A stretch of 64,000 bases of DNA from an uncultured SAR86 cluster bacterium (lineage in GTDB: Bacteria; Pseudomonadota; Gammaproteobacteria; Magnimaribacterales; D2472): positions 64,911 to 128,910 of the forward strand of contig CACJML010000002.1 in assembly GCA_902594515.1 (NCBI GenBank), given 5' to 3'. Positions 16,203 to 21,767 of the stretch are shown here, piece by piece. Both the position numbers and the translations under genes were made by a program. The notes beneath the pieces were generated by a model, which saw only the letters and a program-made list of their open reading frames with translations, searched no databases and was not told the origin of the DNA. Numbering within the stretch: position 1 is the first letter of the stretch; every line of letters begins with the position of its first letter.

Positions 16203-17420
16203 CTAATTAAAGTCTTTTTTAGAAAAGTTATCCTTATTAATTGTATGAGTAATTTTTGGCATCGGATATTTTAGACCAGATGCGCAATTAAATAATACAA
16301 CTTGATCATTTTCATTAATCAAATTCATGGATAGAGCTTTCATATAGCCTGCTGCTGTTGCAGCACCCTCTGGACACATAAGTAACCCTGATTCATTTGA
16401 AATTGCATCCCTAAAATCAGTTATGGATTGTTCACTGACAGCAATCGCTGAACCCTCAGATTCACGAACTGCATCTAGGATGAGGAAGTCTCCTATTGCA
16501 GCTGGTACACGAATACCAGAAGCAATAGTGTTAGCATTCTTCCATAGCTCGGCATGACGTTGATTATTTTCAAATGCTTTTACTATGGGTGCACATGTCT
16601 CAGATTGAATAGCAAACATTTTTGGTAATTTGCAATTCAGCCAACCAAGTTTTTTTAATTCATGAAACGCCTTCCACATTCCTATTAGTCCAGTCCCACC
16701 ACCAGTAGGATAAAAAATAGCGTCGGGTAAGTTCTTATTAAATTGCTCAAATAATTCAAAACCCATAGTTTTTTTTCCTTCAATTCTATAGGGTTCTTTT
16801 AGTGTCGAAACATCAAACCATCCCATTTCATCTTTTAAGTCGTTAATAATTTTGCCGCATTCATTAATAAGGCCATTTACTACTATTGTTTTAGCTCCTT
16901 GAAGTGCTGCCTCATTGATGTTTATTTTTGGTGTATCATCAGGACATAAAACTATTGATTCGATATTAGCCTTTGAAGCATATGCTGCAAGCGCTGCGCC
17001 GGCATTTCCATTGGTCGGTATTGCCATCTTTTGAATACCAAATTCCTTTGCTTTGGCAACTGCTAAGGCCAATCCTCTAGCTTTGAAAGATCCTGTTGGT
17101 AATCTTCCCTCGTCTTTTACGAAAATTTTTGAATTCTTTGGGAACTTAGTTACGTTAATTTTTATTAGAGGAGTTATCAATTCTCCAAGGTCAATAATTG
17201 AGTTTGGTGAATTTATTGGAAGAAGTGGTAAATATTTCCAAAAGCCTGGGTAGTCAGTATGTCGGTTTACAAAATCATTATATGAATAGTCAGTTAATAT
17301 TTTTTTGAAGTCATATTTCACAAGAATAGGCTTACTATCTTCAGATAAATTATGAATTTTATCTTTTGTATATCTTTTCTTTGAGAAAGAGCATTCAAGA
17401 TGGCTCACATAATTGGACAT
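16203..17420 (-). CDS. thrC: Threonine synthase
   Basis: Converts O-phosphohomoserine to threonine with PLP. The PLP lysine lies in GSFKARG, the phosphate-binding loop is TGGGTGL, and TNGNAGAALAAYA is the substrate loop. I chose the ATG at 17420 because homologues begin with a YVSHLECS segment a few residues from the start; an upstream ATG at 17441 would add seven residues. Related PLP enzymes of the same fold (threonine dehydratase, cysteate synthase) are possible, but the N-terminal zinc-less YVSHLEC start favours threonine synthase. Flanked by two winged-helix regulators. Confidence 0.85.
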   Translation of the reverse strand: MSNYVSHLECSFSKKRYTKDKIHNLSEDSKPILVKYDFKKILTDYSYNDFVNRHTDYPGFWKYLPLLPINSPNSIIDLGELITPLIKINVTKFPKNSKIFVKDEGRLPTGSFKARGLALAVAKAKEFGIQKMAIPTNGNAGAALAAYASKANIESIVLCPDDTPKININEAALQGAKTIVVNGLINECGKIINDLKDEMGWFDVSTLKEPYRIEGKKTMGFELFEQFNKNLPDAIFYPTGGGTGLIGMWKAFHELKKLGWLNCKLPKMFAIQSETCAPIVKAFENNQRHAELWKNANTIASGIRVPAAIGDFLILDAVRESEGSAIAVSEQSITDFRDAISNESGLLMCPEGAATAAGYMKALSMNLINENDQVVLFNCASGLKYPMPKITHTINKDNFSKKDFN

Positions 17421-17507
17421 TAAAATTATTTTTACACACATCTTGCATATTTTTAATATTACTTTGTAATGTTTAAATATTTGGAGGAAATGAAAACATA
17501 ATTAAAT

Positions 17508-17522: not shown

Positions 17523-18020
17523 ATGAAAAATAAACTAAATCTAATTGAAGATCTTATTCTCTCGGAGTTAAGAGTGTTCAATATGATGCAGTTTTTTAGA
17601 GGGTTCATCACTGATACGGAATCAAGACTTATTGTCTATGAAGTTTATTGTAGAGATAGAGATGATGCAGAGCCTATTAATGTTAAATGGGTTGAGAAAC
17701 AATTGGAGGTTTCATTTCCCACTGCATTTAAAATCATTGAGAAATTAATAAACGAAGGTTTTTTAAAGAAATCAAGAGGAGCGAAAGATAAGAGATCTTA
17801 TACACTTCACCCAACAAATGCTCTTAAAGAAGGTATCAAGACATATACAATGATGTGGTTAGAGAAAGCTATTGAGCTTGGTTTAATCCAAATGGCTGAT
17901 GAAGAAAGAAAAGAACTCTACAAACATGTAAAGATCAAAGCAGGTGCTGTTAAATTTGATGAGTTTACTCAGGAACTTCAATCAAAACTACATAATGATT
18001 TAATCAATCTAAATGACTGA
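17523..18020 (+). CDS. MarR-like winged-helix transcriptional regulator
   Basis: 165 residues. Central helix-turn-helix: VKWVEKQLEVSFPTAFKIIEKLINEGFL, with wing KKSRGAKDKRSYTLHPT; long terminal helices for dimerisation. This is the MarR-type arrangement. The gene diverges from thrC with about 100 bases between starts, so it may regulate thrC, itself or both. Its stop is one base from the 3' end of the convergent tRNA-Ser. Confidence 0.82.
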   Translation: MKNKLNLIEDLILSELRVFNMMQFFRGFITDTESRLIVYEVYCRDRDDAEPINVKWVEKQLEVSFPTAFKIIEKLINEGFLKKSRGAKDKRSYTLHPTNALKEGIKTYTMMWLEKAIELGLIQMADEERKELYKHVKIKAGAVKFDEFTQELQSKLHNDLINLND

Positions 18021-18021
18021 T

Positions 18022-18111
18022 TGGCGGAGAGACGGGGATTCGAACCCCGGATACGGTTGCCCGTATACTGCCTTTCCAAGGCAGCGCATTCGACCACTCT
18101 GCCATCTCTCC
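18022..18111 (-). tRNA. tRNA-Ser (anticodon GGA)
   Basis: A 90-base class II tRNA with encoded CCA. Acceptor GGAGAGA pairs with TCTCTCC. The anticodon arm is CTGCC-TTGGAAA-GGCAG with anticodon GGA. The long variable arm TACGGGCAACCGTA and T loop GTTCGAATC are present. It is intact and is the ancestral downstream neighbour of pgl; a truncated copy of its 5' half lies at 21595-21635. Confidence 0.97.
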
Positions 18112-18243
18112 TTTTATTCGACTAATAAAATATCTAGATTATCTGCCTTTTCTGTAAGAGCATCGATCGGTAGCGAGGTGGCATTATCTCTTTTTGTCTT
18201 GAGCAAATCTACTTTTTATTGACCGCTAATGAGTAAAACAATT
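18071..18243. repeat. Left direct repeat flanking the R-M island (tRNA-Ser 5' half + pgl 3' end)
   Basis: Aligns without gaps to 21595-21767. By eye about 83% of positions match over 173 bases, including the two-base spacer between the pgl stop codon and the tRNA start. Similarity stops in the tRNA anticodon stem on one side and inside the pgl coding sequence on the other. Confidence 0.85.
18114..18243 (-). pseudogene. Truncated 3' fragment of pgl
   Basis: Reads as the last 42 codons of 6-phosphogluconolactonase (VLLISGQ ... DALTEKADNLDILLVE), ending two bases before tRNA-Ser. The codon for the Glu after SGQ is a TAA stop, and about ten residues differ from the intact copy. No upstream pgl sequence remains; similarity ends where the R-M island begins. 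A relic, not a gene. Confidence 0.85.
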
Positions 18244-18321
18244 ATTGTTTAAGGTATTTAGAAAATCAAAAATATTAAATCTGGTTGAATATCCAACATA
18301 CTGGAATACTATAAGGCCATA

Positions 18322-19461
18322 TTAATTTATAGATTTTTCGAAACCATTTATTTGTCTATGTTTTTTTAAATAATCTTTTCTTTTATCATTTAGAAAAGCC
18401 TTATTTAGACTTTGAGTTATAAATACTTTTCTCCACTCATCTGGCACATTGTCACTTATAAGAACTTTACCATTATCATCAAAGCTTATTTTTCCAGAAT
18501 CAAAATAATAATCAGCATTTTCTCCTAGAAGAAGACCATTATCTACATCATACTCTGCTTCGTCATCACATTTATTATATGCCCAGATATGGCTAGCTAT
18601 AATCTTTGCTTTTGACATTGGGAGATTACTTAACATACATTTACATCTTGAATTATTTTCTGCAAGACCTAGTACTTTGTTTGACTCAATAATTAACATG
18701 TCTCTATATATCTGTTGTTCTGTTTGTGATCTAGGGGGTTTATTTTTTGACTTTGATATTATTTGAATCTCATCATCATCATCACGAAAATGTAATACGT
18801 TATCAATAAATACTATATATTGATCTAAGCATTTCAACATGCTTCTAAAATGGGAAACCTGATTGTACTTTCTATTGATAGCGCCTATTTTTCTAACAAA
18901 ATCCTTTCTTTCTTTTAGCTGATCTATAGACAAAAAATCATTATATTTCTCCGGATTTGTGAACATAATAGCCAAAAGTTCTTCATTATTAAGCTTCTTA
19001 TTATTTTGCAGTGTTCTCAATAAAAATTTAACTCTATTTCCTTCATAACTGTCTTTATTTTTAACTGAGGCATTGAACTGATTATTTTCAAGGAAAATCT
19101 TTGCTTGATATGTATTCCTCTCAAATTCAGAACTAGAATCAAGATATAACCTTGTGAGAGGGTGATATGTTTTTAGTTGAGGATTTACGAACCCGTTTTT
19201 AATCCATGTATTTATTTCTTTTCTTGCATTTGGAGGTCCATTTTTTTTGTCCCAGTTATTAAGCTTTATTATTTTTCCTTGCAACTTTTCATAGCTTGAA
19301 GGGTTTTTGTTATCATTTTGGACGTATGCATCTCTCTCATCGATTGCATCAATAATTAACAAAAGCGATTTTAAAAACTTCGGATTTTTAAAGTTTGTTT
19401 TAGCAGCAGTATATTTCCAATATTCCTCATATTTTTGATTTATTCTATTTTTATAATTCAT
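18322..19461 (-). CDS. HNH restriction endonuclease (putative)
   Basis: 379 residues. The C-terminal quarter is an HNH domain: a CKCMLSNLP start near residue 273, SHIWAYNKC with His291, DNGLLLG with Asn308 and ADYYFDSG with Asp317, then KISFDDNGKVLIS. This SHI...NGLLL...FD.G.ISF pattern is the form found in HNH restriction enzymes. The N-terminal 270 residues are helical and unfamiliar, probably the target-recognition part. The start overlaps the m6A methyltransferase stop by four bases, so it is the third gene of the operon. Cleavage of unmodified DNA is inferred from context. Confidence 0.82.
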   Translation of the reverse strand: MNYKNRINQKYEEYWKYTAAKTNFKNPKFLKSLLLIIDAIDERDAYVQNDNKNPSSYEKLQGKIIKLNNWDKKNGPPNARKEINTWIKNGFVNPQLKTYHPLTRLYLDSSSEFERNTYQAKIFLENNQFNASVKNKDSYEGNRVKFLLRTLQNNKKLNNEELLAIMFTNPEKYNDFLSIDQLKERKDFVRKIGAINRKYNQVSHFRSMLKCLDQYIVFIDNVLHFRDDDDEIQIISKSKNKPPRSQTEQQIYRDMLIIESNKVLGLAENNSRCKCMLSNLPMSKAKIIASHIWAYNKCDDEAEYDVDNGLLLGENADYYFDSGKISFDDNGKVLISDNVPDEWRKVFITQSLNKAFLNDKRKDYLKKHRQINGFEKSIN

Positions 19462-20468
19462 CTTGAGGCTTTAAATAAATATTCTTTGTTTGTCTTTTTA
19501 TTCTCCTTTCCAGTAATTTGATAGTTGTGCTTTTTTTCTAAAAGCTCAACGCGTTTAAAATACTTTTTAAGTAGATTAAGCATAATGTCTTTTTTAGGGG
19601 AAGATTTACTATTAAAGCTTAATAATAGATGTTTAAAATTACCTGAACGAGAAAATAAATAATCAAAATCATCAATTACTTTACTTCTGTCAGTAAAATT
19701 ATTAGGAAATGGTTTTATTTTTTTTTGAGCAACAAATTCATCTAAAAAACCATAAAAGCCAAAATAATCATTCATAGTTCCCGGATATGGCGGATCCAAG
19801 TAAATAATATCAGCATCTACCTTATCTATTACATCAAATATATTCTTGTTCATTGCTTTATTTTTTTTATTATTATCAAAAATGGCATTGTTATAGGCAT
19901 CAACTTCATCTAAAAAGTGGCATTTAAAGCTTTGATTATGGTATGACCTTTTTCTTTTATATTTCTCATAACTAAAATTTTCATCTCTTAGCTGTACGAC
20001 TTTTTTCCATAAAATATTGAACCTAGAGTAAGGCCTTTTTCTTATCATTGCTCTTCTCATCAATGAAATTGCTAGACTCTTCTTGTATGAATTTTTTATA
20101 TTTTTATTTATGTTTAGCCAATACTGATCAAGCTCCATACATTCTTCTGGATAAAAATAAACTTCTGAGTAATTTCTATAAATAAAACCTTTTTTTGGCT
20201 CTCCTTCAAATATCTTAAGAAGATCATTTTTGTTAAGTTTAAATTTATTATTCTGTATTAAAGCCTTTGCAAGATGATAATTTATTTCTAAGACATCATT
20301 AGAAATTACTTTATAACCAAGCTGCTTTGCCCTGAAAGATATTGAGCAGCCCCCAGAAAAAGCATCAAAGATAGAAAATGTTTTTTTTGGAAAATTTGAA
20401 GTTATCCATTCATTAACTTTTTCTTTGTTTCCAATAAAATTTACTTTTGGGAACTTAGCTTGCATCAT
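19458..20468 (-). CDS. D12-class DNA adenine-N6 methyltransferase
   Basis: 336 residues. Motif I is FDAFSGGCSISF (around 34-45), preceded by the NFIGNKEK block seen in Dam-like enzymes. The catalytic motif IV is YLDPPYPGTM (DPPY at 225-228), which marks an N6-adenine methyltransferase of the alpha/D12 class. The segment between them is the recognition domain. The start lies 14 bases inside the end of the m5C methyltransferase. Probably protects one strand of the site cut by the HNH nuclease. Confidence 0.92.
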   Translation of the reverse strand: MMQAKFPKVNFIGNKEKVNEWITSNFPKKTFSIFDAFSGGCSISFRAKQLGYKVISNDVLEINYHLAKALIQNNKFKLNKNDLLKIFEGEPKKGFIYRNYSEVYFYPEECMELDQYWLNINKNIKNSYKKSLAISLMRRAMIRKRPYSRFNILWKKVVQLRDENFSYEKYKRKRSYHNQSFKCHFLDEVDAYNNAIFDNNKKNKAMNKNIFDVIDKVDADIIYLDPPYPGTMNDYFGFYGFLDEFVAQKKIKPFPNNFTDRSKVIDDFDYLFSRSGNFKHLLLSFNSKSSPKKDIMLNLLKKYFKRVELLEKKHNYQITGKENKKTNKEYLFKASR

Positions 20469-21450
20469 TATTCATCTCTATAATGCATTCAGCAATTTTT
20501 TCTGCTAGTAATGGTGGAACTGCATTACCAATTTGTTGCTGTTGAGATATTTTAGATCCTTTAAAAATAAAGTTATCAGGAAAAGTCTGAATTCTTGCAA
20601 GTTCTCTTACTGTTAACGCCCTATTTTGATTGTAATGAAATACTTTTCTCATATCTCCAGTTATACAAATACTAGGTTTTGATGATGCATAGCGGATATA
20701 TTTTCTGACATCCCCAGACTTAGGTCTAATTTTGATAGGAATAAAACTTCTATCTCCTCCATCAGGAATGAAGCTCATTTTTTTGAGCATTTGCTCGGTG
20801 TGTTTCATGGACTCATGATTAATGATGTTAGATCTCATTCCGTTATCGAGCCTTGGTAAATCATCTATAGCTTCTTGAACAGATTTTTCCTTGTTAGCAC
20901 TTTTATATGGAAAAATTATTTCCTTATTTTTTTTACTACCAATAAAAAAAACTCTTCTTCTTTTTTGAGGAATTCTAAAATCGACTGCATTTAATACTTT
21001 GCAAGCGACATTAAATCCAATCTTCTCAAGAGATTTTATAATCTCATTACGAAATCTTTTATTTGAATAGAGTCTTTCAACATTTTCCATAACCACATAA
21101 GTAGGATCTATTATTTTGGTAACTCTTATAAACTCTTTGAAAAGATAGTTTCTTTCATCATCGATAAATTTTCTTCCAATGTTTCCGGCAATACTAAAAC
21201 CTTGGCATGGAGGGCCACCAGCGACAATATCTATTGAATCATTTCCAATAAATTGTAATATTTTTTCTTTTTTTAATTTTTTAATATCTTGAACAACTAG
21301 ATTATGTTTTGGAAAATTTTCTAGATACGTCTGAGCAGAACTTTTATCAAAATCAACAGAAAAAATGTTTTGAAATCCTTTATTTTGAAATCCTAGTGTA
21401 AGTCCTCCAGCTCCGCTAAAAAGGTCTACAAAGTTAATATTTTTATTCAT
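20455..21450 (-). CDS. DNA cytosine-C5 methyltransferase
   Basis: 331 residues, first gene of the R-M operon. Motif I FSGAGG (11-16), catalytic motif IV GGPPCQGFS with Cys82, motif VI MENVE (121-125), motif VIII PQKRRRVFF (161-169) and motif X QQQQIGNAVPP are all present in order. It is therefore a complete Dcm-type enzyme. The target-recognition domain between VIII and X is only about 100 residues, typical for a single specificity. Pairing with an m6A enzyme suggests an asymmetric target modified differently on each strand. Confidence 0.95.
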   Translation of the reverse strand: MNKNINFVDLFSGAGGLTLGFQNKGFQNIFSVDFDKSSAQTYLENFPKHNLVVQDIKKLKKEKILQFIGNDSIDIVAGGPPCQGFSIAGNIGRKFIDDERNYLFKEFIRVTKIIDPTYVVMENVERLYSNKRFRNEIIKSLEKIGFNVACKVLNAVDFRIPQKRRRVFFIGSKKNKEIIFPYKSANKEKSVQEAIDDLPRLDNGMRSNIINHESMKHTEQMLKKMSFIPDGGDRSFIPIKIRPKSGDVRKYIRYASSKPSICITGDMRKVFHYNQNRALTVRELARIQTFPDNFIFKGSKISQQQQIGNAVPPLLAEKIAECIIEMNNDAS

Positions 21451-21594
21451 TAAAATGATTCTAACGTAAATTGAATTAATTTAATCTCATTTGTTACCAT
21501 CCTAATTGCTTTAGGTTCAGCAAGGGTCTATAAGTTGGTTCCTGCACTGGCTAGGTAATAATTGTCTCCTAATTGAGTAGATGTTCTAGCAGTT

Positions 21595-21635
21595 GCTTTC
21601 CAGAGCAGCGCATTCAATAACTCCGCCATCTCTCC
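21595..21635 (-). pseudogene. Truncated tRNA-Ser relic (5' half only)
   Basis: 41 bases matching the 5' acceptor strand, D arm and anticodon region of tRNA-Ser(GGA) with about seven mismatches. Sequence beyond the anticodon stem is unrelated, so no tRNA can form. It sits two bases after the intact pgl stop codon, marking the pre-insertion junction. Confidence 0.8.
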
Positions 21636-21767
21636 TTTTATTCTACTAATAGAATCTCTAGGTTATCTGCATTTTCTATGAGAGCATCAATCGGTAGTAA
21701 GGAGGTATTATGTCTCCTTGTCTTCAGTAAATCTACTTTTTCTTGACCGGTAATTAATAAAACCATT
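21595..21767. repeat. Right direct repeat flanking the R-M island
   Basis: Counterpart of 18071-18243 in the same orientation. It contains the tRNA-Ser relic and the 3' end of the intact pgl gene. Confidence 0.85.

What the first reader, a model, noticed from the sequence alone, without database searches (positions are those of the whole stretch)
18071..21767. R-M island inserted at a pgl/tRNA-Ser junction, leaving a duplicated junction
Two direct repeats of about 173 bases, 83% identical by eye and alignable without gaps, flank the three-gene R-M cassette. Each repeat spans the pgl 3' end, the same two-base spacer and the tRNA-Ser 5' half. The left copy has a full tRNA and a broken pgl; the right copy has a full pgl and a broken tRNA. 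This is the footprint expected from insertion into an ancestral pgl-tRNA-Ser locus, without any integrase.
Basis: seen in the sequence. Interest (0 to 1): 0.8.

Follow-up and report, generated by a model that had tools for sequence, protein, structure and literature searches.

The report
DNA-cutting defence genes beside a tRNA
A small set of bacterial DNA-cutting defence genes has slipped in between a sugar-metabolism gene and a transfer-RNA gene, leaving a duplicated 172-base junction so that both neighbours stayed whole; it is a clear new example of an insertion pattern already described for such genes in Helicobacter.

Summary
In detail: 18072-18243 and 21596-21767 are ungapped direct repeats, 144 of 172 identical. 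Each spans the pgl 3' end, a two-base spacer and the first 40 nt of tRNA-Ser(GGA); the left copy has the full tRNA and a pgl remnant, the right copy full pgl and a tRNA remnant. Between them, 3352 bp hold an intact C5-methylase / N6A-methylase / HNH-nuclease operon. Insertion is well supported and fits 'insertion with long target duplication', known for R-M genes. The island has no integrase gene, and the repeat runs to the tRNA 5' side, unlike ordinary tRNA-targeting islands (recalled). The route is unsettled: the two copies differ more from each other than from congeners, which favours entry of DNA already carrying the junction, by single crossover, but tests for a crossover mosaic were not significant. 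New member of a known kind.

The parts
18022..18111 (-). complete tRNA-Ser (anticodon GGA)
   Evidence: ARAGORN; Rfam RF00005 60.4 bits; first 40 nt identical in the five congeners with data, G001-G004 and G006
18072..18243 (-). left copy of the 172-bp direct repeat (tRNA 5' 40 nt + spacer + 3' end of pgl)
18112..18243 (-). two-base spacer plus pgl 3' remnant, 132 bp, one internal TAA
   Evidence: (G000:C2:83027-83158, 44 residues, 1 TAA)
18244..21595 (.). inserted segment, 3352 bp, 28.7% GC against 33.5% and 35.3% in 8 kb on either side; not present at the junction of G001-G004
18322..19461 (-). HNH nuclease, predicted type II restriction enzyme (379 aa)
   Evidence: PF13391; PADLOC REase_II 1e-50
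19458..20468 (-). N6-adenine DNA methyltransferase, D12 class (336 aa), DPPY motif present
   Evidence: PF02086; PADLOC MTase_II 2.5e-121; motif
20455..21450 (-). C5-cytosine DNA methyltransferase (331 aa), PCQG and ENV motifs present
   Evidence: PF00145; TIGR00675; motifs
21596..21767 (-). right copy of the 172-bp direct repeat
21596..21635 (-). tRNA-Ser 5' remnant, 40 nt, ends three bases after the anticodon; six differences from the native tRNA, three of them in the D-loop
21638..22306 (-). complete pgl (6-phosphogluconolactonase, 222 aa)
17523..18020 (+). MarR-like gene next to the tRNA; the same neighbour aligns in G001-G004 and fixes the left side of the empty site

Best explanation
A three-gene type II R-M operon entered an ancestral pgl/tRNA-Ser(GGA) junction and left a 172-bp duplication of that junction, so that pgl and the tRNA both remained whole (insertion with long target duplication). 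The step from empty to filled site is shown by relatives. The most likely route, which is inferred, is a single crossover between the chromosome and a circular or transiently circular molecule that carried the R-M genes plus a copy of this same junction from a related strain; host homologous recombination would suffice and no integrase is needed. Since then the two unneeded parts, the left pgl end and the right tRNA half, have decayed, and the repeats now share no identical run longer than 19 bp, so excision by recombination should be rare (inferred). The operon most likely acts as an ordinary restriction-modification defence with an asymmetric target, one methylase per strand (inferred from its gene content).
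For: Repeat geometry. Empty site with conserved neighbours on both sides in G001-G004; tRNA-Ser(GGA) within about 120 bp of the pgl match in 11 of 13 other family genomes with a pgl at E<=1e-30. Adenine methylase: no close homologue in the other 202 genomes of the order searched. Three genes only in the insert, none a recombinase. For a junction copy brought in: in the 132-bp pgl part the two copies are 110/132 (83.3%) identical, less than each of the eight copy-to-congener values (86.4-92.7%, summed); of 118 sites where the congeners agree, none is a change shared by both copies, while 6 are private to the left, 9 to the right and 2 differ in both. At the private rate of the 2.5 kb next door (70 of 2130 agreeing sites) a recent duplication would share about 3.9 changes; none has a probability near 0.02 (arithmetic).
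Against: The crossover mosaic is not significant: one-breakpoint permutation p = 0.18, runs p = 0.06. The excess of private changes in the right copy is weak (9/118 against 70/2130, p = 0.034, region chosen after looking), and its changes are not more often amino-acid-changing than in the rest of pgl (5 of 11 against 7 of 19, p = 0.71). A one-step duplication soon after this lineage split from its congeners would also leave no shared changes. One degenerate junction pattern found no carrier in viral contigs; metagenomes could not be searched.
Confidence: 0.58

Rival explanations
1. One-step insertion with a true long target duplication: the R-M DNA inserted between two breaks 172 bp apart, and gap filling copied the native junction. 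Both copies began identical and native and drifted apart since an old insertion.
For: Same empty-site and repeat evidence; the left pgl end and the right tRNA half are free to decay and do so (internal TAA; D-loop changes). Papers name this pattern for R-M genes (passages).
Against: No change shared by the two copies against the congeners (0 of 118 sites) requires the insertion to be nearly as old as the split from the congeners; the coding right copy is slightly less like each of G001-G004 than the decaying left copy is.
Confidence: 0.22
2. A tRNA-targeting integrative element whose integrase is lost or supplied by another element; crossover in the anticodon loop of tRNA-Ser.
For: The repeat ends at tRNA position 40, just after the anticodon at 35-37, where some integrases cut (recalled). 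tRNA genes are usual targets (recalled).
Against: The shared block runs to the tRNA 5' side and 132 bp upstream into pgl, whereas such elements restore the tRNA 3' end (recalled); no integrase among the island's three genes, only two Xer-sized PF00589 frames in the genome; one junction pattern found nothing in viral contigs.
Confidence: 0.13
3. A tandem duplication of the pgl-tRNA junction came first, and the R-M genes entered between the copies later.
For: Would give the same structure; it is a two-step version of the same outcome.
Against: None of the six other genus genomes searched with the right copy has two long matches.
Confidence: 0.04
4. Assembly artefact joining two strains.
For: Draft genome in 16 contigs; reads could not be checked.
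Against: Island and both flanks lie well inside one 263,716-bp contig; the repeats are rather unlike (84%, longest identical run 19 bp), so a false join across them is unlikely (inferred); both remnants show decay.
Confidence: 0.03

Closest known systems
Insertion with long target duplication of R-M genes (Nobusato et al. 2000; Furuta et al. 2010), known here only from passages of PMC3031569, PMC1643837 and PMC3874152; the two originals were not read
   Same: R-M genes inserted; direct repeats of the order of 100 bp made of target sequence; related genome with a single copy; no linked mobility gene
   Different: Another, unnamed host; the passages I saw name Helicobacter pylori and I cannot say which further hosts the originals cover; target here is a protein-gene/tRNA junction with both genes left whole; copies only 84% identical
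HpyAV / Hin4II type IIS R-M systems (PMC2816704: one section and passages read)
   Same: C5 methylase, N6A methylase and downstream HNH nuclease in this order and direction; separate methylases as in Hin4II
   Different: No direct sequence comparison with HpyAV or Hin4II was made; target sequence unknown
Tycheposons and other tRNA-bordered islands (PMC10872708, passages read)
   Same: Island borders a tRNA gene in a small genome
   Different: No tyrosine recombinase in the island; the repeat includes the tRNA 5' half and the upstream gene, where that paper reports repeats of the last 20 nt of a tRNA-Lys for one island type

Membership tests
Insertion with long target duplication (R-M genes) | R-M genes are the inserted cargo | tested here: met
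   (by homology; activity not tested)
Insertion with long target duplication (R-M genes) | flanking direct repeats of the order of 100 bp made of target sequence | tested here: met
   172 bp, 84%; target origin from relatives
Insertion with long target duplication (R-M genes) | related genome with one copy and no insert | tested here: met
   G001-G004
Insertion with long target duplication (R-M genes) | no linked IS, integrase or transposase | tested here: met
   only three ORFs of at least 70 aa in the insert, all assigned to R-M families
Insertion with long target duplication (R-M genes) | repeat arose by duplication of the recipient's own target in the insertion step | tested here: inconclusive
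   no shared derived sites, but mosaic and codon tests not significant
tRNA-targeting integrative island / tycheposon | integrase or tyrosine recombinase in the island | tested here: not met
   genome-wide PF00589 only two Xer-sized frames
tRNA-targeting integrative island / tycheposon | repeat spans and restores the tRNA 3' end (recalled) | tested here: not met
   repeat spans the tRNA 5' 40 nt and the pgl end
HpyAV/Hin4II-like type IIS R-M | C5 MTase - N6A MTase - HNH nuclease, same direction | tested here: met
   same order in 6 of 8 loci with a related adenine methylase
HpyAV/Hin4II-like type IIS R-M | sequence homology to HpyAV/Hin4II | not tested
   those sequences were not at hand
HpyAV/Hin4II-like type IIS R-M | asymmetric target cut at a distance | not testable with these tools
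   needs enzyme assay or methylome

The most novel reading that the evidence does not exclude
The R-M operon plus its own copy of the pgl/tRNA-Ser junction is a self-addressing unit: it can leave one strain as a circle and enter the same site of any related strain by host homologous recombination alone, restoring both neighbouring genes each time, so that the carried target sequence does the job of an integrase. The right pgl end would then be a foreign allele picked up in transit.
Probability: 0.2. Interest if true: 0.6.

Novelty: new member of a known kind. Interest (0 to 1): 0.38.

Why it matters
How R-M genes without any mobility gene move between bacteria is an open question. This locus is an unusually clean case: empty site in four congeners, conserved neighbours on both sides, and an insertion that spares both a metabolic gene and a tRNA. 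The divergence between the two repeat copies makes the two main routes (one-step duplication, or entry of DNA that already carried the junction) distinguishable with a few more strains.

Tried and rejected
Copies of the island in viruses: pattern-based searches of viral contigs found no homologous operon (adenine methylase: 5 stretches, none a relative, cytosine methylase: 3 distant relatives of 141 stretches, at most 32% identical, HNH: 23 stretches, none a relative). These searches reach close relatives only. Two contigs with an exact 20-base match to the right tRNA remnant show no tRNA gene and no match to this locus's proteins in the pieces held: a chance match. One degenerate junction pattern had no viral match. 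161 bases at the right non-coding flank gave only short matches, in 29 of 61 genomes (own included), best apart from itself 35 bases at E 9e-4, taken as chance. Rfam gave nothing above its gathering scores but the tRNA. The plasmid collection holds HNH and adenine-methylase homologues below 60% identity only, the phage collection two partial HNH matches; the cytosine methylase was not searched there.

Reading the crossover point from the repeats looked promising by eye but failed the permutation and runs tests and the codon test; kept as inconclusive.

Junction as a hotspot: one distant genome (G094) has a short-chain-dehydrogenase-like gene (label by eye) between pgl and tRNA-Ser, and G095 has the same gene after pgl with no tRNA found on the contig piece; no direct repeats of 40 bp or more there. 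Not enough to call it a hotspot. The 18 genomes with weaker pgl matches (E above 1e-30) were not examined for a neighbouring tRNA.

Nobusato 2000 and Furuta 2010 were not read; the second is not held. Print searches for such a case in SAR86: (SAR86, genomic island, tRNA: 15 papers; SAR86, restriction-modification: 5 papers), listings only, none about such an island by title or abstract start. That this organism is SAR86-like is my guess from genome size and composition and was not tested. One search (six terms on integrase-free circles) listed no paper.

Full report
What is there. An ungapped search of the window finds one direct repeat of 50 bp or more: 18072-18243 and 21596-21767, 172 nt, 144 identical. 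The 600-bp flanks align with score 204, against at most 33 in 300 shuffles. On the minus strand each copy reads: about the last 43 codons of pgl with the stop, two bases, and the first 40 nt of tRNA-Ser(GGA). The left copy continues into a full tRNA (18022-18111; Rfam 60.4 bits); its pgl part is a remnant with an internal TAA. The right copy continues into a full 222-aa pgl; its tRNA part stops three bases after the anticodon and differs from the native tRNA at six of 40 bases, three of them in the D-loop.

What lies between. The 3352 bp between the repeats have 28.7% GC, against 33.5% and 35.3% in 8 kb on either side, and hold one minus-strand run of three genes with overlapping ends: C5-cytosine methylase, D12-class adenine methylase, HNH nuclease. 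The methylase motifs PCQG, ENV and DPPY are present. This is the gene order of the HpyAV/Hin4II type IIS systems as described in PMC2816704 (one section and passages read); sequence homology to them was not tested. A pattern-based scan of species genomes gave 8 loci with a related adenine methylase. In 6 of 8 all three genes lie in the same order (in L089 the nuclease is cut by the contig end); L092 starts inside the methylase at a contig end and has the nuclease; L094 is a distant methylase alone. The first seven are 52-62% identical in the methylase and come from Bacteroidota records, one alphaproteobacterial and one Patescibacteria record.

Empty site. Of six other genus genomes held, four (G001-G004) have pgl, two bases, tRNA-Ser, then DNA aligning with the window's MarR-like gene, with no insert; G004 is a draft with many Ns and a pgl split over two frames. 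G006 has the tRNA 18 bases from its pgl match but other sequence beyond; G005 gave no pgl match and is 71% complete. In the family, 13 of 106 other genomes match pgl at E<=1e-30. tRNA-Ser(GGA) lies within about 120 bp of that match in 11; G094 has one gene in between and G095 has that gene and then no tRNA on the piece held. Genomes with weaker pgl matches, 18, were not examined for the tRNA. The adenine-methylase search of 203 genomes of the order matched five: the own genome, a 34%-identical protein in G046 and three short matches; the G046 piece held shows no cytosine methylase or HNH match. The HNH search matched 2 of 61 genomes, the own one and a 97-residue match. Cytosine methylases are commoner, 12 of 61, none above 49% identity apart from the own. 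Searched with the right repeat, none of the six other genus genomes shows two long matches.

Mechanism. Three routes were weighed. Ordinary tRNA-targeting integration is disfavoured: no recombinase among the island's genes, two tyrosine-recombinase frames of 307 aa, Xer-sized, in the genome as held, and a repeat that restores the tRNA 5' half plus the end of the upstream gene, whereas such islands restore the 3' end (recalled). Its one point in favour is that the repeat ends near the anticodon loop. One-step long target duplication and single-crossover entry of DNA carrying the junction both fit the geometry. In the pgl part the two copies are 83.3% identical, lower than each of the eight copy-to-congener comparisons (86.4-92.7%, summed). 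Among 118 sites where congeners agree, no change is shared by both copies, 6 are private to the left, 9 to the right and 2 differ in both. With the private rate next door, 70 of 2130 agreeing sites in about 2.5 kb, a recent duplication would share about 3.9 changes, so none has a probability near 0.02 (arithmetic). Hence the copies parted about when this lineage left its congeners, or before. Private sites of the left copy are 4, 18, 26, 90, 106 and 112, those of the right copy 40 to 97 in nine places, roughly as a crossover would give, but one-breakpoint permutation (p = 0.18) and runs (p = 0.06) do not establish it, and amino-acid-changing sites are not enriched in the right copy. The excess of private changes in the right copy is weak (p = 0.034, region chosen after looking). 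I therefore give the single-crossover route as likeliest but unproven.

Present state. The longest identical run between the copies is 19 bp, at the pgl end and tRNA start. Homologous recombination in Escherichia coli needs about 20-30 bp of identity to be efficient (recalled), so the island is probably stable now.

Comparison with the known. R-M genes inserted with long, variable target duplications of the order of 100 bp, unlinked to a mobile element, are described in passages of PMC3874152, PMC3031569 and PMC1643837, which credit Nobusato et al. 2000 and Furuta et al. 2010 (not read). This locus meets four of five tested features of that class, the fifth (origin of the repeat in the insertion step) being inconclusive. 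It differs in host, in preserving a protein gene and a tRNA gene at once, and in the divergence between the copies; I cannot say whether the originals contain tRNA-junction cases. A parallel was seen in Salegentibacter sp. R32 (L093), where a homologous operon, preceded by a helix-turn-helix gene (label by eye), lies between two of three intergenic repeats of about 265 bp; these look like dispersed repeats rather than a target duplication, so I do not count it as a second case. The other homologous loci examined for repeats (L087, L088, L089, L090, L091) show no long flanking pair.

Limits. 

Noticed in passing
window 16203-17441: A PLP-dependent (PALP) enzyme gene lies between two MarR-like genes in the window, whereas in G001-G004 the two MarR-like genes adjoin directly: a separate gene difference about 0.6 kb from the tRNA.
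   Followed up: partly
L117:3753-4583 and L116:4723-5553: In two genomes of another genus a short-chain-dehydrogenase-like gene (label by eye) follows pgl, in L117 between pgl and tRNA-Ser, without direct repeats of 40 bp or more.
   Followed up: partly
L093:1289-8365: Salegentibacter sp. R32 carries three copies of an intergenic repeat of about 265 bp; one interval holds a homologous R-M operon with a helix-turn-helix gene, the one before it arsenic-resistance-like genes (gene labels by eye).
   Followed up: partly
L090:3280-5462: A Paludibacteraceae record has two HNH nuclease matches in tandem after the two methylases, 33% and 30% identical to the window's.
   Followed up: no
window 17523-18020: By eye, the MarR-like gene beside the tRNA alternates between stretches close to G004 and stretches unlike all four congeners, which may point to recombination near the island.
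   Followed up: no
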